Origin: an uncultured Pseudomonadota bacterium
GTDB taxonomy: Bacteria > Pseudomonadota > Alphaproteobacteria > RF32 > CAG-239
Direction of reading: 5' to 3'
Assembly (NCBI GenBank): GCA_949289935.1
Contig: CASEQD010000015.1
Location: 1 to 32,766, forward strand
DNA: 32,766 nt
Shown here: positions 24,472 through 31,198 of the stretch, piece by piece
Position numbering within the stretch: the stretch's first letter is position 1
How the letters are laid out: the number at the start of each line of letters is the position of its first letter
Notes under the pieces: generated by a model
Seen by the model: only the letters and a program-made list of their open reading frames with translations
The model's database searches: none
Told to the model about the DNA's origin: nothing
Translations under genes and position numbers: made by a program

Positions 24472-24669
24472 CTAAACTCCAAGACCTAATATTAACTGCA
24501 TAACCCATCCGATAATCTGATCAATAAAGAAAAAGAACGTTGCGGCAATAGCAACCAGCACAATGACCATAATTGAGGTTTGGGTAACTTCTTTTCTCGT
24601 CGGCCAGGTAACTTTTTTAACCTCTTGTTTTACCTGTCTGAAAAACTGTATCGGACTAATTTTTGCCAT
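24472..24669 (-). CDS. secE: Preprotein translocase subunit SecE
   Basis: SecE clamps SecY in the SecYEG channel. The 65-residue product is the short single-helix form: an amphipathic N-terminus with the conserved [20 protein letters not shown], then one membrane helix (about 33-60). An AGGAT site precedes the ATG. It is the first gene of a secE-nusG unit. The tRNA-Trp gene often found upstream in other bacteria was looked for and is not present. Confidence 0.97.
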
Positions 24670-24785
24670 GGATCCTATCCATAAAATAAATTACAACAAC
24701 GGCCCTTTCCGGACGCAAACAACCGGGCGCGTCTGCCCACCGCAACCCCGGAGAAACAAACCACTACGCCCAAACTAGTGTTGCC

Positions 24786-24814
24786 AACATATTAAATTAT
24801 TTTTAACATGTCAA
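24786..24814 (-). promoter_or_regulatory. Probable promoter of secE-nusG
   Basis: On the minus strand a perfect TTGACA (24809-24814), 17-base spacer and TATGTT (24786-24791). The leader to secE would be about 110 bases and contains a GC-rich stretch with hairpin potential (24705-24770). The rest of the 323-base spacer 24670-24992 is AT-rich with nothing else recognised. Confidence 0.65.
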
Positions 24815-24992
24815 TAAATATATTCTCCGTTTACCCAAATAATCCGGACAAGCTTCTCCCCAAACGCTCTTTTCGCCTCTGCCTTCCTTCACAAAAAAAC
24901 ATTTTTACAACTTTTTTATTGCCTTTTATCAAAGAACCTTTACAATACCGCTTCAGATAAAAATTATTATAACCCCCTAAAATTATACTATT

Positions 24993-25622
24993 ATGAACAT
25001 GAAAATCAACTTCCGACAACCGTCAATCATCGGCTGGAAGACAAAAAAAACAGAGCTCCTTTTGCCTCCCGGTGTAAAATCAATCATCGTTGAACCTTTA
25101 GAGCCGCCATGTCCTTTCTGCGGTTCTCTGCTGAATAACGCCGGATGCCGCTGCCCGGAATTCTCAAAAGCGCTGCGGCATTTCAAAATTAATCGTTATG
25201 GAACGGAAGAAATAGACATCCGCGCTTATAAGGTTAAAACAAATTTTCTGCTTGATTTTGACATCAATCATACAAAAATCAAAAAGGCGCCGCTAAACGA
25301 CGCTTTGCTGGCGCAAATCACGGGCGGAAGCGAATTTTGTCTCCGGGGTATTGGCAAATGGCTGCTGTCCGAGGCTCGTTTTGACAAAGGCATTTTAACC
25401 TTCTGGTTTACCCAAACCGGCAGTCCGAACATCTGGCAGTGCGAAATGGAATTGCCGGACTTTAACATTCCGCAATATAGGAATGTTAATGCCTGGAAAA
25501 CCGAAACAAACTGTAAAACGCGCCCTTTTAGCTCCAAAAGGATAGGAGGATATTCAATTGAGCATACAGCAAAAATCATCGAAACAATTGCATATTCCGA
25601 ATTTCTGACAAAGCTGCAATAA
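24993..25622 (+). CDS. Unrecognised protein with a zinc-ribbon-like cysteine cluster
   Basis: The 209-residue product has C40-x-x-C43 and C52-x-C54 in PPCPFCGSLLNNAGCRCPEF, a spacing suggestive of a zinc knuckle; metal binding is inferred. The remainder (about 70-209) is mixed, with FLLDFDINHTKIKKAPL and WFTQTGSPNIWQCEMELPD. No signal peptide, membrane helix or known family is seen. No Shine-Dalgarno precedes either ATG (codon 1 or codon 3). It is divergent from secE and followed by a good terminator, so it is a single-gene unit. It marks the end of the conserved cluster; the DNA beyond is accessory. Confidence 0.65.
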   Translation: MNMKINFRQPSIIGWKTKKTELLLPPGVKSIIVEPLEPPCPFCGSLLNNAGCRCPEFSKALRHFKINRYGTEEIDIRAYKVKTNFLLDFDINHTKIKKAPLNDALLAQITGGSEFCLRGIGKWLLSEARFDKGILTFWFTQTGSPNIWQCEMELPDFNIPQYRNVNAWKTETNCKTRPFSSKRIGGYSIEHTAKIIETIAYSEFLTKLQ

Positions 25623-25633
25623 TCCCCCCGAAA

Positions 25634-25673
25634 AAAACGACCGGCAAAAATCAGTCCTCCGGCCGTTTTTCTT
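25634..25673 (+). terminator. Intrinsic terminator
   Basis: Arms AAAACGACCGG (25634-25644) and CCGGCCGTTTT (25659-25669), with one mismatch and a 14-base loop, are followed by T. It lies 11 bases after the preceding stop. Confidence 0.8.
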
Positions 25674-25683
25674 ATGGAAAATA

Positions 25684-25829
25684 TTACCACAGAGAATGCA
25701 TCTCCCCAAATTCTTTCCAGGTTTTCATTGATGTATCTATTTTTTTGCAAATGGTCACGGAAATATAAGCGTTGATAAAAGCAATCCTAAAGTAATAAAT
25801 ACTTTCTTTATCGTTATCATAAATATCAT
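25684..25829 (-). pseudogene. Internally deleted copy of the membrane-protein gene at 29186
   Basis: The stretch 25673-25867 matches two separated parts of 29175-29838. Its left 76 bases match 29175-29249, which carries the 3' end of that gene. Its right 119 bases match 29720-29838, which carries the upstream region and first codons. The 470 bases between are missing. The junction falls on a shared TGC, so a short-homology deletion is likely. In addition, the codon after FP in the start region is TGA where the full copy has TGG, so the copy is doubly dead. The remaining start reads MIFMITIKKVFITLGLLLST. Confidence 0.9.
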
Positions 25830-25857
25830 CCCATAGTTAATTTTTTATAAAATATAA

Positions 25858-25894
25858 ACAAAAAAATGACACCGGCTCAACACCGATGTCATTT
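25858..25894 (-). terminator. Intrinsic terminator ahead of the dead membrane gene
   Basis: Arms AAATGACACCGG (25864-25875) and CCGATGTCATTT (25883-25894) pair with one mismatch; on the minus strand a run of seven T follows. It occupies the same place relative to the dead copy as the different hairpin at 29836-29861 does to the intact copy. Confidence 0.75.
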
Positions 25895-25975
25895 GCTCAA
25901 TTCTTCCGCTTGACTTACATCCCTCAGGGGATTTTCTTTTTTTATCCACTTTCTGGGGTACAGATCAATCAGGAG
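25889..25975 (-). pseudogene. Possible C-terminal remnant of a lost gene
   Basis: An open frame ending in TGA at 25889-25891 reads LLIDLYPRKWIKKENPLRDV then SQAEELSK, and its stop lies at the edge of a terminator, as a real gene end would. Upstream it runs directly into the cassette hairpin half at 25976, so the 5' part appears to have been replaced. The family was not recognised. Confidence 0.35.
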
Positions 25976-26015
25976 GGGAACCGCCGCTTTTTGTTGCAAT
26001 CTGTTACACAGAATT

Positions 26016-26669
26016 TTAGAATTCGGAAATGGTGATATAAACCTCTCTATCAGCTTCTTTGACGTGAAAAATTTTTGCATCTTTTACGCCTTTGGCTGTT
26101 GCGATCCAACCCTTTCCTTTGAGGATACTAGTTCCATAACTTTCCGTTACGTTTTTAACTTCCGTAGAGTCCATGGTTTTTGGTATTATATACCAATAAG
26201 CTTTTTGAAATCCGTTTCCTATAACACGGCATTCTTTTACCACCATTCCTTTTTTTGAAGGCTTTAGCATTACTTCATTAGGATAGTGTTCAATGGCAAA
26301 TTTGCGTCTGGTATTTTCGTCAGCATATATGTATACCTCGCAATTATTGTAGATTTTATACACTTCCGGTATCAGATGCGGAGGAATTTGAAACATTTCT
26401 GGTAAATCCGGCAAATCCGGCCTTTGTGGCGGCGAAATTATGTCGGGAGTTCTTTTCAGCCATGTTTCATAGTCCATTATTGCTTGATTTTTAAGACTTT
26501 TTGCTGTGTCTAATTCATCAGAAATAATGAACCTGAACGGTACATTTTGTGGCGGATTTTTCAGTATTTCTCCGTCCGGCATCACAAACAGAGGATATCC
26601 CATGGCTTTGCCTTGGTTGTTTATCCTGTTTAACAGTTCTTCCAATTTTTTTTCTAGCGTTTTTCCCAT
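26016..26669 (-). CDS. Cassette family protein 1 (unrecognised family)
   Basis: The 217-residue product belongs to no family I recognise. It has no signal peptide or membrane helix. The N-terminus (1-110) is almost identical to cassette gene 2: a short helix, then GKAMGYPLFVMPDGEILKNP and a proline-rich link (DIISPPQRPDLPDLPEMFQI). The middle (about 135-195) differs from gene 2. The last 20 residues (KIFHVKEADREVYITISEF) are again shared. The ATG at 26669 has no Shine-Dalgarno, as in gene 2. A near-consensus promoter lies 44 bases upstream. Its own hairpin terminator is cut in half at 25976. Confidence 0.75.
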   Translation of the reverse strand: MGKTLEKKLEELLNRINNQGKAMGYPLFVMPDGEILKNPPQNVPFRFIISDELDTAKSLKNQAIMDYETWLKRTPDIISPPQRPDLPDLPEMFQIPPHLIPEVYKIYNNCEVYIYADENTRRKFAIEHYPNEVMLKPSKKGMVVKECRVIGNGFQKAYWYIIPKTMDSTEVKNVTESYGTSILKGKGWIATAKGVKDAKIFHVKEADREVYITISEF

Positions 26670-26712
26670 AATATAACATAATTTTTAAATTAATAATTAG
26701 TAACTGACAGCA

Positions 26713-26740
26713 ATTATAGAAGTTTTTTAATTTTTGTCAA
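26713..26740 (-). promoter_or_regulatory. Near-consensus promoter of cassette gene 1
   Basis: On the minus strand TTGACA (26735-26740), a 16-base spacer and TATAAT (26713-26718): both boxes are perfect. The start would be about 37 bases before the ATG. The same sequence precedes cassette 2 and the dead cassette. Confidence 0.85.
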
Positions 26741-26782
26741 TATTTTTGGAGATAAGCAGAGAAAAATATTATATAAAGTGTA

Positions 26783-26858
26783 TATGCAAAAAAGCGGGGT
26801 TCCCTCGGAACCGCCGCTTTTATGCAAAAAAGCGGGGTTCCCTCGGAACCGCCGCTTT
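26783..26858. repeat. Two perfect tandem copies of a 38-bp hairpin unit (terminator of cassette gene 2)
   Basis: Unit 1 is 26783-26820 and unit 2 is 26821-26858, identical. Each unit, starting TATGCAAAAAAGCGGGGTTC, forms a 14-bp hairpin: AAAAGCGG plus GGTTCC against GGAACC plus CCGCTTTT, with one bulged G and a CTC loop. A- and T-runs flank it, so it would terminate in both directions. It lies 25 bases after the stop of cassette gene 2. Confidence 0.9.
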
Positions 26859-26883
26859 TTGTTGCAATCTGTTACACAGAATT

Positions 26884-27567
26884 TTAGAATTCGGAAATGA
26901 TGATATAAACTTCTCTATCAGCTTCTTTGACATGAAAAGTTTTTACTTCTTCTACGCCATGGGCTGTTGAGCCCCAATCCTTTCCTACGTTGGCAAAATC
27001 TCCAGAACTTCCCGTATTGAGCATTGGAATAAAGTCAGAACTCTGTCTGCACATCAGTTCAGTGTCTTTAACTTCCGCAAAGTCTGTTATATAAAAATAA
27101 ACTTTTCGAAATCCGTTTTCTATAACAATGCATTCTTTTACCACCATTCCTTTTTTTAAATGCTTTATTTTTACTTCATCAGGATAGTGTTCAATGGTAA
27201 ATTTGCGTCTGGTATTTTCGTCAGCGTATATATATACCTCACCATTGTAGATTTTATACACTTCCGGTATCAGATGCGGAGGAATTTGAAACATTTCTGG
27301 TAAATCCGGCAAATCCGGCCTTCGCGGCGGCGAAATTATGTCGGGAGTTCTTTTCAGCCATGTTTCATAGTCCATTATTGCTTGATCTTTAAGACTTTTT
27401 GCTGTGTCCAATTCATCAGAAATAATAAACCTGAACGGTACATTTTGTGGTGGATTTTTCAGTATTTCTCCGTCCGGCATCACAAACAGAGGATATCCCA
27501 TGGCTTTGCCCAGGTTGTTTATCCTGTTTAACAGTTCTTCCAGTTTTTTTTCTAGCGTTTTTCCCAT
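26884..27567 (-). CDS. Cassette family protein 2 (unrecognised family)
   Basis: The 227-residue product is a close relative of cassette protein 1: the first 105 or so residues differ at only a few positions, and the end (FHVKEADREVYIIISEF) is shared. The middle differs: after FRKVYFYI it has DFAEVKDTELMCRQSSDF then MLNTGSSGDFANVGKDWG, a segment shared instead with gene 3. So the gene looks like a mosaic. It is preceded by a perfect promoter (27611-27638), has no Shine-Dalgarno, and ends at the tandem hairpins 26783-26858. The function is unknown. Confidence 0.75.
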   Translation of the reverse strand: MGKTLEKKLEELLNRINNLGKAMGYPLFVMPDGEILKNPPQNVPFRFIISDELDTAKSLKDQAIMDYETWLKRTPDIISPPRRPDLPDLPEMFQIPPHLIPEVYKIYNGEVYIYADENTRRKFTIEHYPDEVKIKHLKKGMVVKECIVIENGFRKVYFYITDFAEVKDTELMCRQSSDFIPMLNTGSSGDFANVGKDWGSTAHGVEEVKTFHVKEADREVYIIISEF

Positions 27568-27610
27568 AATATAACATAATTTTTAAATTAATAATTAGTA
27601 ACTGGTAACA

Positions 27611-27638
27611 ATTATAAATGTTTTTTAATTTTTGTCAA
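27611..27638 (-). promoter_or_regulatory. Near-consensus promoter of cassette gene 2
   Basis: TTGACA (27633-27638), a 16-base spacer and TATAAT (27611-27616) on the minus strand, in a block nearly identical to that of cassette gene 1. Confidence 0.85.
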
Positions 27639-27680
27639 TATTTTTGGAGATAAGCAGAGAAAAATATTATATAAAGTGTA

Positions 27681-27735
27681 TATGCAAAAAAGCGGGGTTC
27701 CCTCGGAACCGCCGCTTTTCGGAACCGCCGCTTTT
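27681..27735. repeat. Hairpin unit with a duplicated arm (terminator region of cassette gene 3)
   Basis: A complete 38-bp hairpin unit (27681-27718) is followed by a 16-bp tandem copy of its right arm, CGGAACCGCCGCTTTT at 27704-27719 and 27720-27735. A stretch shared with the other cassettes (TTGTTGCAATCTGTTACACA) follows. Then 60 bases of unrelated sequence separate it from the gene 3 stop, unlike in cassette 2. Confidence 0.85.
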
Positions 27736-27817
27736 TGTTGCAATCTGTTACACAGAATTTCTCTTTTTCACAAGTAAAAGCTAATGGTTTTCATAAGCGT
27801 TTTTATGGCCAAAAATT

Positions 27818-28324
27818 TTAGAATTTGTAATTGGCGACAAAAACCTCTCTATCACCTTCTTTGGCGTGAAAAATTTTTGCATCTTTTACACCAGTGGCCG
27901 CTACACTCCAATCCTTTCCTTTGTGGATAAGATTTCCAGAACTTCCCGTATTGAGCATTGGGTTAAAATCAGAGCTCTGTTTGTGCATCAGGTCGGTGTC
28001 TTTAACTTCCGTAAAGTCTGCGTCTTCCAATTCGGGCTTTCCAAAAAAAGAGTTGATTTTCTGCTTTGTTCTAGTCCAAAAATCGTCTTTTTTCTGAACT
28101 TCCCGGCAAGGAGGAACCGGATAATTGTCCTGATTTGATGTCAGCCGGCGTTGATGTGCCGGATTGGTATCTATCGGACCTTCAACCGTAAATAATACTT
28201 GCTTTCCATAAAGCCGCGTTGAAGCGTATGTGCCATCGGAAAAAACATAAATCGGATAGCCGTATTGGCGACCGAATTCATTAAATATTTCTGCTGTCAT
28301 GGTTTTAGTTTTTTTTATAGACAT
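27818..28324 (-). CDS. Cassette family protein 3, divergent N-terminus (unrecognised family)
   Basis: The 168-residue product shares its C-terminal part (about 100-168: FTEVKDTDLMHKQSSDFNPM then LNTGSSG, GKDW, KIFHAKEGDREVFV) with cassette protein 2. Its N-terminus is different at the DNA level but shows a weak match in protein: FGRQYGYPIYVFSDGTYAST against GKAMGYPLFVMPDGEILKNP. It therefore seems a shorter, older relative. It has no promoter block of its own; the block at 28586-28614, left over from a dead cassette, is the nearest. No Shine-Dalgarno is seen. The function is unknown. Confidence 0.65.
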   Translation of the reverse strand: MSIKKTKTMTAEIFNEFGRQYGYPIYVFSDGTYASTRLYGKQVLFTVEGPIDTNPAHQRRLTSNQDNYPVPPCREVQKKDDFWTRTKQKINSFFGKPELEDADFTEVKDTDLMHKQSSDFNPMLNTGSSGNLIHKGKDWSVAATGVKDAKIFHAKEGDREVFVANYKF

Positions 28325-28347
28325 AAATATAATCTTTTTGTGCTCTG

Positions 28348-28541
28348 CTCATTATTGCTTGATTTTCAAGACTTTTTGCTGAGTCCAATTCATCAAAAAT
28401 AATGAACTTGAAGGTACACCTTGCAGTGTTTTTTCAGTATTTCCCTGTCCGGCATCACAAACAGAGGATATCCCATGGCTTTGCCCTGGTTGTTTACCCT
28501 GTTTAACAGTTCTTTTAGCTTTTTTCTAGCGTTTTTTTCGT
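28348..28541 (-). pseudogene. 5' remnant of a fourth cassette gene
   Basis: The DNA matches the first 190 or so bases of cassette genes 1 and 2, including the stretch encoding GYPLFVMPDGE. The start ATG has become ACG (28539-28541), small deletions shift the frame (giving a TAA in the fifth-to-seventh codon region), and the rest of the gene is absent. It stops at about 28348, 24 bases before cassette gene 3 begins. The promoter of this dead gene survives at 28586-28614. Confidence 0.85.
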
Positions 28542-28585
28542 AATATAACATAATTTTTAATTTTAATAATTAGTAATTGATGGTA

Positions 28586-28614
28586 ATCATAGATGTTTTT
28601 TTGATTTTTGTCAA
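28586..28614 (-). promoter_or_regulatory. Surviving promoter of the dead cassette, probably serving gene 3
   Basis: TTGACA (28609-28614), a 17-base spacer and TATGAT (28586-28591) on the minus strand. It is one substitution and one base of spacing away from the perfect promoters of cassettes 1 and 2. Transcription would pass through the remnant into cassette gene 3. Confidence 0.7.
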
Positions 28615-28644
28615 TATTTTTTTGATTTTTTGCAAAATATTTTA

Positions 28645-28715
28645 TGAGTTATGCAGACCGCCGATGCATGCTCTTCGTTCTCCCGGGCTTTATCCAGAAT
28701 CAACAGGCCTGACGA
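28645..28715 (-). pseudogene. Short remnant of a DUF1566-like gene
   Basis: On the minus strand the peptide LLILDKARENEEHASAV matches RLILDKVRENKDHAPAA of the intact gene at 30256-30948, and the DNA matches closely over about 60 bases. No longer part of a DUF1566-like gene surrounds it in order. A nearby IIVVSLPPG (about 28750) recalls the VVVSL motif of the intact gene but on the wrong side, so it may derive from a second copy. Confidence 0.6.
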
Positions 28716-28842
28716 CAAAAAAAACATAGTGTCAAATTTCCTACCCGGCGGCAAAGATACAACTATTATATTAAACATTCTCCTGATGTCAAATAAACTT
28801 AATAATCTCAAGAAGCTACAGAATTAAAAAAACATTATACAA

Positions 28843-29046
28843 CTAATCAAATCTTCCTTTGCAAATTTCCAAAGAGTGTCCTGTTTCTACACATTGATCG
28901 ATAATTTCAGGCTTTTCAATATATTCATATATCAAAAAAGAAACCATTAAATAAAGAAAAAAAATAAAAAATATTATACCAATTAGAATTACGGTTTTTT
29001 TTAATATATTACCACCTTTTGTTAATATATCTTTGTACAATCTCAT
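28843..29046 (-). CDS. Small single-helix membrane protein
   Basis: The 67-residue product has a short basic N-terminus (MRLYKDILTKGGNILKKT), one membrane helix (about 18-40, ILIGIIFFIFFLYLMVSF) and a C-terminal tail with two cysteines (DQCVETGHSLEICKGRFD). The frame is open up to 29211, but the ATG at 29046 is chosen because GGAG lies 6 bases upstream. It follows the membrane protein at 29186 by 139 bases on the same strand, so the two may be co-transcribed. The function is unknown; the tail probably faces the periplasm by the positive-inside rule. Confidence 0.6.
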   Translation of the reverse strand: MRLYKDILTKGGNILKKTVILIGIIFFIFFLYLMVSFLIYEYIEKPEIIDQCVETGHSLEICKGRFD

Positions 29047-29185
29047 CACAATCTCCGTTAGGATATTTCGTCCCAAGTAACCTGCCTGTTTTATTAACGT
29101 ATTGGTCTGCTTGACTACTGTCAACAGCATTGTCGCCTGATGAAATATCTTTATCTTCTTAGAAAAAGCAATAGTATGGAAAATA

Positions 29186-29791
29186 TTACCACAGAGAATG
29201 CGTCTCCCCAAATTCTTTCCAGGTTTTCATTGATGTATCTATTTTTTGCTGAATTTCCGAAGGAATAAAACAACTTTCATTATCTGAACAAGCCATTTGA
29301 AAACTATCATAATCAGAACTCTCTGGAGAAATACTCATAAGATATACCAAACGCCATGCAGATATTATCGCTATAAATATGACAGTAATAATGCTCCATT
29401 TAATTTTTGGGAAAGGCATAAAAATTTTTGGCTGCCATACCCAAATCATAGCCATATAAGCAACTATTCTTAACATTAATATGAGTGAGGCAATAATCAA
29501 AACAGAAAACAAAAAGTTTTTAGGTAAATACGCTAAAACAGCCAGAGTTAAAATTTCCTCCAGAGCTAAAACCAAATTGAAAATAATAATAACCGGAATT
29601 TTCCAGATCAAAGAACATTTTGAAATATCTTTCAAATTGCCGTTAAAAACAAATTTCCAAATCAAAAAAGGAACAACAAATCCGACATAAATCGGAGGAA
29701 TAATCAAAATAAAAAATGCAAATGGCCACGGAAATATAAGCGTTGATAAAAGCAATCCTAAAGTAATAAATACTTTCTTTATTGTTATCAT
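29186..29791 (-). CDS. Multi-pass membrane protein of unknown function
   Basis: The product is about 201 residues with roughly five hydrophobic segments: near the N-terminus (VFITLGLLLSTLIFPW), then FAFFILIIPPIYVGFVVPFL, IPVIIIFNLVLALEEIL, FSVLIIASLILMLRIVAYMA and IITVIFIAIISAWRLVYLM. A C-terminal soluble tail follows with two cysteines (MACSDNESCFIPSE). Two in-frame ATGs exist, 29800 and 29791. The second is preferred because GGGA lies 8 bases before it. No family is recognised. A damaged second copy lies at 25684-25829. The 470 bases missing there are present here, so this is the intact version. Confidence 0.7.
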   Translation of the reverse strand: MITIKKVFITLGLLLSTLIFPWPFAFFILIIPPIYVGFVVPFLIWKFVFNGNLKDISKCSLIWKIPVIIIFNLVLALEEILTLAVLAYLPKNFLFSVLIIASLILMLRIVAYMAMIWVWQPKIFMPFPKIKWSIITVIFIAIISAWRLVYLMSISPESSDYDSFQMACSDNESCFIPSEIQQKIDTSMKTWKEFGETHSLW

Positions 29792-29830
29792 AAATATCAT
29801 CCCATAGTTAACTTTTTATAAAATATAAAC

Positions 29831-29870
29831 AAAAAAATAGCCGATTCGTCAATCGGCTATTCGTTTTTTA
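29831..29870. terminator. Two-way intrinsic terminator
   Basis: Arms AATAGCCGATT (29836-29846) and AATCGGCTATT (29851-29861), perfect 11 bp with a 4-base loop, are flanked by seven A on the left and six T on the right. On the minus strand it would end the frameshifted gene at 29868-30106. Confidence 0.85.
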
Positions 29871-30255: not shown

Positions 30256-30948
30256 CTAAAAAGCAAAAAAACAACGGACTAATCGTTTATAACCTTTATC
30301 TTCGGAGGAACAGCTGCCGCTGCGTAGACTGACAACCACTGCTTCGCAATAATTTTTAGTCTCAGTCGAAGTCCAATAAAACTCCCCTATATAATGATAG
30401 TCCATATACAGCCTCAAAGGTTTACCGAGTTTTTTTAAAGTTTTCTGAATGGCTCTAAGATTTGGATATACTTTAAGCCACTCACTTTGACTGGGTAAAA
30501 ATGCATCTCCGGATTGAACGCCGTCATAATCATACATAGCACACCACTCGGCTGCCGGTGCATGATCTTTGTTCTCCCGGACTTTATCCAGAATCAAACG
30601 GGTATTTCCCTTGCCGCTTTCCCTCCAGGATAAAACAGCAGAATCACTATCACTACACTGCGATACCTGGTTTGACCACGCCAATGCTTCTTCTCGCAAC
30701 CCGACAACCAATCCATGTCTGCCTGTCTCGTCAACCCAGCCGACAACTCCGGAAATTTGTTTATTAAGAAGCTTGTCCGTAACTGTTCCGTCTGAATAAT
30801 AATACATTCCAGGACGGGCAATAAATGTAAGTTTTGCTTTTTCTGTCATAGCAGAAACCCCGCCAAGATACCTGATAACCTCTTCCGCTGTCAAATCAAG
30901 CCCTTTAGCCACTGCTTCTAGCAATTTTAATTTTTCATTTTTCTCCAT
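30256..30948 (-). CDS. DUF1566/Lcl-like (C-type-lectin-like fold) protein
   Basis: The 230-residue product has a short helical N-terminus (MEKNEKLKLLEAVAKGLDLT), then a domain of the DUF1566 / FISUMP type: GVVGWVDETGRHGLVVGL (67-84), DAFLPSQSEWLKVYPNL (138-154), FYWTSTET (180-187) and a terminal GYKRLVRCFFAF. These Trp/Ser-rich motifs belong to a C-type-lectin-like fold used for binding and display in many bacterial and phage proteins. No signal peptide is seen. The frame is open to 31092, but those 48 codons are hydrophobic, upstream of the promoter, and unlikely to be translated. No Shine-Dalgarno precedes ATG 30948. Confidence 0.7.
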   Translation of the reverse strand: MEKNEKLKLLEAVAKGLDLTAEEVIRYLGGVSAMTEKAKLTFIARPGMYYYSDGTVTDKLLNKQISGVVGWVDETGRHGLVVGLREEALAWSNQVSQCSDSDSAVLSWRESGKGNTRLILDKVRENKDHAPAAEWCAMYDYDGVQSGDAFLPSQSEWLKVYPNLRAIQKTLKKLGKPLRLYMDYHYIGEFYWTSTETKNYCEAVVVSLRSGSCSSEDKGYKRLVRCFFAF

Positions 30949-30982
30949 AATTATAACGTTTAATAATAAATACTTGCTAAAA

Positions 30983-31011
30983 ACTTTAAAACATAACATC
31001 CGTTTTGTCAA
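30983..31011 (-). promoter_or_regulatory. Probable promoter of the DUF1566-like gene
   Basis: TTGACA (31006-31011), a 17-base spacer and TAAAGT (30983-30988) on the minus strand, giving a leader of about 28 bases to ATG 30948. This also argues for the shorter start. Confidence 0.65.
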
Positions 31012-31198
31012 TAGAAAATAGACAAAAAAATCCAATTTTACAATAAATACCGTCATTTCGATAAGATATCGATCATGTAAAAAAAATAACAATACAAGCT
31101 TGATTTATAAAGAAAAAATTAGCCGCAGCAAAACTAAGTTGTTCGCGCAAGTAGAAAGCTTATAGGATAATACACGGACTACTATCTTATAAAAATCA

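What the first reader, a model, noticed from the sequence alone, without database searches (positions are those of the whole stretch)
25976..28614. Array of promoter-gene-hairpin cassettes encoding an unrecognised protein family
Three related genes and one remnant lie in tandem on one strand. Cassettes 1 and 2 repeat with a period of about 870-900 bases and keep the promoter (TTGACA-16-TATAAT), the first 105 codons, the last 20 codons and a strong hairpin. Each has its own consensus promoter and its own terminator, so each gene could be expressed independently. None shows a signal peptide, membrane helix or family I know. This layout suits a locus that copies, varies and discards members, such as a variable surface, immunity or anti-phage repertoire. 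The function is open.
Basis: partly seen in the sequence, partly recalled or inferred. Interest (0 to 1): 0.78.

Follow-up and report, generated by a model that had tools for sequence, protein, structure and literature searches.

The report
Mosaic cassette array of unknown proteins
A gut bacterium carries a small, horizontally acquired row of self-contained genes for an undescribed protein family; the genes keep a constant front end while their back ends change quickly, and in related bacteria the same family has grown to dozens of copies, as in repertoires that track fast-changing partners.

Summary
The array is real, but its anatomy differs from the first description. It derives from a three-gene operon (A-B-C) found in another genus (G067). 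Cassettes 1 and 2 are in-frame A::B fusions. Cassette 3 is a broken A, an intact B and a stub of C. Promoters are perfect for cassettes 1 and 2; the hairpin recurs three times, but cassette 1 keeps only half of one. All proteins share a ~50-residue N-terminal domain, confidently predicted (pLDDT ~95), with no family or solved-structure match. Among genomes searched it occurs only in one alphaproteobacterial family: 16 of 152 genomes, with 12 to 30 domain matches per genome in six genomes of one genus, often in tandem, with copy number differing at the same chromosomal site. 'Promoter, AT-rich leader without Shine-Dalgarno, gene, terminator' is family-wide (leader in 56 of 68 domain genes against 9 of 371 neighbours). 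Cassettes 1 and 2 are conserved up front (dN 0.012, dS 0.095) but not behind (dN 0.48, dS 0.08). B is far closer to a gene in another genus (dS 0.34) than housekeeping genes are (saturated). Best reading: a birth-and-death repertoire of constant-head, variable-tail proteins, probably recognition or effector proteins. The molecular target is unknown.

The parts
26016..26669 (-). Cassette 1: in-frame A::B fusion gene, 217 aa (N-domain, middle beta-rich domain from A, C-terminal domain from B)
26713..26740 (-). Promoter of cassette 1, TTGACA-16-TATAAT; leader with AATTATT follows (leader match 26692-26740)
25975..26000 (-). Half of the hairpin unit behind cassette 1; does not fold as a terminator
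25864..25894 (-). Alternative terminator-like hairpin about 120 bases behind cassette 1
26884..27567 (-). Cassette 2: in-frame A::B fusion gene, 227 aa; junction ...YFYI|TDFAEVKD
27611..27638 (-). Promoter of cassette 2, TTGACA-16-TATAAT (leader match 27590-27638)
26790..26859 (-). Two head-to-tail copies of the terminator hairpin behind cassette 2 (26790-26821 and 26828-26859)
27688..27719 (-). Terminator hairpin behind cassette 3
27818..28324 (-). Cassette 3: intact B gene (168 aa as listed; likely start at 28300 by comparison with relatives)
28330..28551 (-). Remnant of the A gene upstream of B: frameshifted, and deleted after about codon 70
28586..28614 (-). Promoter of the A remnant, TTGACA-17-TATGAT; the only promoter in front of B (leader match 28565-28614)
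27735..27817 (-). Remnant of the start of gene C; its CTGTGTAACAGATTGCAACAAAA end also precedes the hairpin of cassettes 1 and 2
30256..30948 (-). Neighbouring gene with the same leader (leader at 30962-31011); its product matches the C-terminal part of N-domain proteins in genus g4; probable start ATG 30948, 230 aa

Best explanation
The locus is a recently acquired fragment of a birth-and-death multigene family. Each member is meant to be a self-contained transcription unit: a near-consensus promoter, an AT-rich leader without Shine-Dalgarno, a small modular protein and an intrinsic terminator. The protein has a constant N-terminal domain (about 50 residues, one helix and short strands) and a changeable C-terminal part (beta-rich here; helical repeats or an Lcl_C-like domain in other members). 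Members multiply by tandem duplication, change by fusion, end-swapping and fast amino-acid replacement in the C-terminal part, move between genomes, and decay. Shown: anatomy, fusion, decay, duplication, varying copy number, inter-genus closeness, conserved head with changing tail. Inferred: the constant domain docks to one common partner while the tail recognises a fast-changing target, most likely a protein of another organism (a eukaryotic host cell, a competing bacterium or a phage).
For: Ancestral A-B-C operon in G067 with remnants of A and C in the window. Fusion junctions visible base by base. N-domain in 16 of 152 genomes of the family and in no genome outside it among 385 drawn from the class. 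Copy number differs at shared sites: the site between the Era-like and LepB-like genes has 2, 3, 2 and 1 in G070, G065, G068 and G072. Cassette layout is family-wide: TTGACA-T....T in 85% against 12% of neighbouring genes, terminator in 81% against 37%, Shine-Dalgarno-like site in 1.5% against 43%; full leader in 56 of 68 against 9 of 371. Cassette 1 vs 2: codons 1-105 dN 0.012, dS 0.095; codons 161-206 dN 0.48, dS 0.08, heterogeneity p = 5e-4. An independent cassette pair in G125 has the same constant ends and changed middle. In g4 pairs the N-domain is much less diverged than the rest. B, window vs G067: dS 0.34, whereas nusG is saturated between G000 and g4 genome G066 and is 1.6 within the genus.
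Against: No partner, substrate or phenotype is known. The site test for excess amino-acid change rests on 31 aligned codons of one pair in a gapped region, with segment borders partly chosen after seeing the alignment (p = 0.017, uncorrected). In G125 and g4 pairs dS rises together with dN in the variable part, which points to recombination or age rather than selection. In the window genome the leader also precedes other small genes (9 matches in about 420 kb sampled), so it is not exclusive to this family. All genomes are metagenome bins or single genomes of separate species, so within-species variation is not shown.
Confidence: 0.6

Rival explanations
1. Effector family: the proteins are delivered into eukaryotic cells (gut protists or host) or neighbouring bacteria, with the N-domain as a shared docking or export domain and the tails as effector parts. 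It would work like the expanded families of Parachlamydiaceae.
For: Constant N-domain with helical repeats or other tails, tandem arrays, large copy differences between close relatives, as reported for Parachlamydiaceae (PMC4209131). A single VirB4 gene is present in 113 of 136 genomes of the family, including the window's genome next to VirB-like genes. No signal peptide visible.
Against: VirB4 is also present in most genomes without the N-domain, and was not found in G125 and G065, which have it. No secretion signal was tested. T6SS VipB is absent from all 136 genomes.
Confidence: 0.35
2. Internal defence or immunity repertoire: small cytosolic proteins that neutralise toxins of competitors or act against phages, kept as a changing set.
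For: Small soluble-looking products, individual promoters, patchy distribution, inter-genus closeness, changing C-terminal part.
Against: No match in PADLOC, NCBIfam, Pfam or PHROGs, none in phage or plasmid records or viral contigs. No toxin or known defence gene seen beside the arrays; in g4 they sit between housekeeping genes. The long repeat proteins of g4 do not look like immunity proteins.
Confidence: 0.25
3. Neutral decay: an acquired operon that is duplicating and falling apart without present function.
For: A and C are already broken, cassette 1 has lost half its terminator, and none of the ten genus relatives has the genes.
Against: All three remaining ORFs are open, indels in cassettes 1 and 2 keep the frame, both promoters are perfect, and the first 105 codons are under clear constraint (dN/dS about 0.12).
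Confidence: 0.2
4. Assembly artefact of a metagenome bin (repeat collapse or chimaera).
For: The source is probably a bin (67 contigs) and the repeats are long.
Against: Copies differ by many substitutions and in-frame indels; completeness 100%, contamination 0.19%; the same layout occurs independently in G125.
Confidence: 0.04

Closest known systems
Expanded NEX/PEX families of Parachlamydiaceae (PMC4209131)
   Same: Lineage-restricted family, constant N-terminal domain, variable repeat-rich C-terminal part, tandem arrays, large copy differences between relatives, birth-and-death evolution.
   Different: Those have eukaryote-like F-box or BTB domains and were exported by a type III system in an assay. 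Here the N-domain matches nothing known, most genes have their own promoter-leader-terminator, and export is untested.
Antigenic-variation loci with silent cassettes (such as pilS or vls; from general knowledge)
   Same: Tandem homologous cassettes with constant ends and a variable middle.
   Different: Here cassettes have their own promoter and start instead of one expression site with silent donors, and no surface signal was seen.
Integron gene cassettes (from general knowledge)
   Same: Small self-contained units of unknown function, rearranged as units.
   Different: The units have their own promoters, the hairpin is a short intrinsic terminator present only here in the genome, and no integrase ORF was recognised in the window.
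Lcl_C / FGE-like proteins (PF07603)
   Same: The neighbour P0006, and the C-terminal part of some g4 N-domain proteins, resemble it weakly.
   Different: Score 14.2 bits against a cut-off of 34.9; the array proteins do not match it at all.

Membership tests
Any described family (Pfam, NCBIfam, PHROGs, PADLOC) | Match above the curated cut-off, or E below 0.001 | tested here: not met
   no such match for the array proteins
Any protein with a solved structure | Sequence-profile or fold match | tested here: inconclusive
   No sequence match with E below 0.05; Foldseek none below E 0.001; VIA-align best Z 3.7. Models hold several domains, so single domains are only weakly tested
Antigenic-variation silent-cassette locus | Silent cassettes without promoter beside one expression site | tested here: not met
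   Cassettes 1 and 2 each have a 12-of-12 promoter; 85% of N-domain genes family-wide have one
Diversity-generating retroelement target | Adenine-directed substitutions in the variable region | tested here: not met
   Codons 105-206 of cassette 2 vs 1: 13 of 45 changes at A, where A is 38% of bases; indels present
Diversity-generating retroelement target | Reverse transcriptase and template repeat nearby | not tested
   No such ORF recognised in the ORF list, but no dedicated search was made
Integron cassette array | Integrase and attC sites; promoterless genes | tested here: inconclusive
   Genes have promoters and the hairpin is a short terminator; attC models were not run
Parachlamydiaceae-like effector expansion | Constant N-domain, variable C-terminal part, tandem arrays, copy number varying between relatives | tested here: met
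Parachlamydiaceae-like effector expansion | Export by a secretion system | not testable with these tools
   Only the presence of VirB-like genes was seen
Known anti-phage defence systems | Match to a PADLOC model | tested here: not met

The most novel reading that the evidence does not exclude
A previously undescribed repertoire system of one alphaproteobacterial family: dozens of single-gene cassettes per genome, nearly all with the same promoter-leader, a constant head domain and exchangeable tails under pressure to change, serving as exported effectors or as an internal recognition set against other organisms.
Probability: 0.35. Interest if true: 0.8.

Novelty: new variant of a known kind. 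Interest (0 to 1): 0.56.

Why it matters
If right, this is an undescribed protein family that a poorly studied group of gut bacteria uses as a fast-changing repertoire. The window shows, at base level, how such members are made: operon, fusion, duplication, decay. A shared head domain and a common promoter-leader give direct handles to find the whole set in any genome of the group, and the head domain is a single target for finding the common partner.

Tried and rejected
Family and structure searches gave nothing usable; a missing fold match is not evidence for a new fold. Phage, plasmid and viral-contig searches gave nothing. No Rfam match near the array. Rejected: mutagenic-retroelement origin (substitutions not adenine-directed); T6SS delivery (no VipB in 136 genomes); silent-cassette switching (cassettes have promoters). 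The hairpin as a genome-wide repeat was rejected: three copies, all here. The leader as an exclusive signature was weakened: 9 matches in about 420 kb of the same genome, several before other small unknown genes. A recent foreign donor for cassette 1's tail was considered: dS is nearly uniform along the pair, so replacement in place fits better, whereas in g4 pairs and G125 the dS jump fits end-swapping. Literature on this bacterial group gave no account of the family.

Full report
What is there. The window is a complete 32,766-base contig of a 1.7-Mb alphaproteobacterial genome in 67 contigs. Next to nusG and secE, on the minus strand, lie ORFs 26016-26669, 26884-27567 and 27818-28324 and a remnant at 28330-28551. 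Repeat spacings are 868-901 bases between cassettes 1 and 2 and 934-977 between 2 and 3. Cassettes 1 and 2 have exact TTGACA-16-TATAAT promoters; the remnant has TTGACA-17-TATGAT. The hairpin occurs three times, only here in the genome, and folds much better than shuffles behind cassettes 2 and 3, but cassette 1 keeps only half.

What it came from. Relatives were found in other genera of the same bacterial family. G067 has an operon of three genes, A (170 aa), B (160 aa) and C (119 aa). Base-level alignment shows that cassettes 1 and 2 are A joined in frame to the last ~65 codons of B. Cassette 1 still holds the AAAACCATG of the old A-stop/B-start junction; cassette 2 does not. Cassette 3 is A with frameshifts and a deletion, an intact B and a stub of C. 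The short CTGTGTAACAGATTGCAACAAAA before every hairpin is also a piece of C. The array is therefore a rearranged and duplicated operon.

Horizontal movement. None of ten genus relatives has a match. Window B and G067 B have dS 0.34; nusG between the window genome and another genome of that genus (G066) is saturated, and within the window's own genus nusG dS is 1.6. The B genes are thus far closer than their genomes, which points to transfer. The place beside secE holds different genes in each genus relative.

The proteins. All share an N-terminal domain of about 50 residues with the pattern LNxxGxxxGYPxYxFxDG. AlphaFold predicts it at pLDDT about 95 in B, followed by a poorly predicted linker and a four-stranded C-terminal sheet; the fusion has the N-domain, a middle beta-rich region and the B-type sheet. 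The middle region of A and protein C can be aligned (VYIYAEPxIRxxF), so they may be related; this was not tested further. No curated family, PDB sequence or confident fold matches.

A larger family. The N-domain profile finds 16 of 152 genomes of the bacterial family and none outside it among 385 genomes drawn from the class. Six genomes of genus g4 hold 12 to 30 domain matches each, many proteins having two domains; tails are helical repeats, an Lcl_C-like part or others. The genes sit singly or in tandem between housekeeping genes, and copy number differs at the same place: between the Era-like and LepB-like genes 2, 3, 2 and 1 (G070, G065, G068, G072); between the GrpE- and LptF-like genes 4-5, 2, 2 and 3 (G070, G065, G068, G071); near the AsmA-like gene 3, 2 and 1 (G066, G072, G070). 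The names of these neighbours are my reading of their sequences.

The cassette layout is family-wide. Of 68 N-domain genes, 85% have TTGACA with a T....T box at the right spacing 45-110 bases before the start, against 12% of 304 neighbouring genes; 81% against 37% have a terminator hairpin; 1.5% against 43% have a Shine-Dalgarno-like site. A motif ATTATT lies in the leader of 81% against 11% of other genes and 17% in shuffles; the full leader is in 56 of 68 against 9 of 371, and several of those nine look like further family members. In the window the leader occurs four times, expected 0.07: three in the array and one before the gene at 30256-30948, whose product resembles the tail of g4 N-domain proteins. 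A sample of other stretches of the genome has nine matches in about 420 kb, so the leader is enriched, not exclusive.

How it changes. Between cassettes 1 and 2, dS is about 0.08-0.10 along the first 206 codons and 0.18 in the last 21, while dN rises from 0.012 (codons 1-105) to 0.126 and 0.478, then falls to 0.083. The excess of amino-acid over silent change in codons 161-206 gives p = 0.017, and the contrast with the front p = 5e-4; the segment is short and the borders were partly chosen by eye. G125, in a third genus, has an independent pair with identical promoter, front and end and a changed middle; one copy carries an early stop. In g4, adjacent pairs have a little-diverged N-domain and a strongly diverged rest with higher dS, as expected from end-swapping or conversion of the front.

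What it does. Shown: duplication, fusion, decay, inter-genus closeness, constant head, changing tail, autonomous transcription signals. Inferred: the head binds a common partner and the tails meet fast-changing targets. The closest analogue is the expanded effector families of Parachlamydiaceae (PMC4209131). A VirB4 gene is found in 113 of 136 genomes, with VirB-like neighbours in the window's genome, so an export route exists, but its presence does not follow the N-domain and export is untested. T6SS is absent. A defence or immunity role is open but has no positive hit.

Verdict. The molecular function is not known.

Noticed in passing
25673-25867 and 29175-29838: A copy of the membrane-protein gene at 29186-29800, lacking about 470 internal bases, lies on the other side of the array in the same orientation (98-99% identical in two blocks), so the array is bracketed by direct repeats that could delete it by recombination.
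   Followed up: partly
30256-30948: The gene listed as 30256-31092 probably starts at ATG 30948; it shares the array's leader, and its product resembles C-terminal parts of N-domain proteins of genus g4.
   Followed up: yes
28660-28703: A 44-base piece, 91% identical to the inside of the 30256-30948 gene, lies between the array and its right flank.
   Followed up: partly
24563-29800, secE side: The place beside nusG-secE carries different accessory genes in each genus relative, a variable insertion place next to ribosomal-protein genes.
   Followed up: partly
L149 (G000:C1:68500-88000): VirB3, VirB4, VirB6 and VirB8-like genes beside a secretin-like gene in the window's genome; VirB4 is single-copy in most genomes of the family.
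   Followed up: partly
L158:6666-, L160:7722+, L160:481-, L157:7160+: The same promoter-leader without Shine-Dalgarno precedes several small genes of unknown function elsewhere in the genome.
   Followed up: no
L042, L044, L045, L049: Proteins of about 355 aa without the N-domain but with the full leader; possibly another branch of the same cassette set.
   Followed up: no
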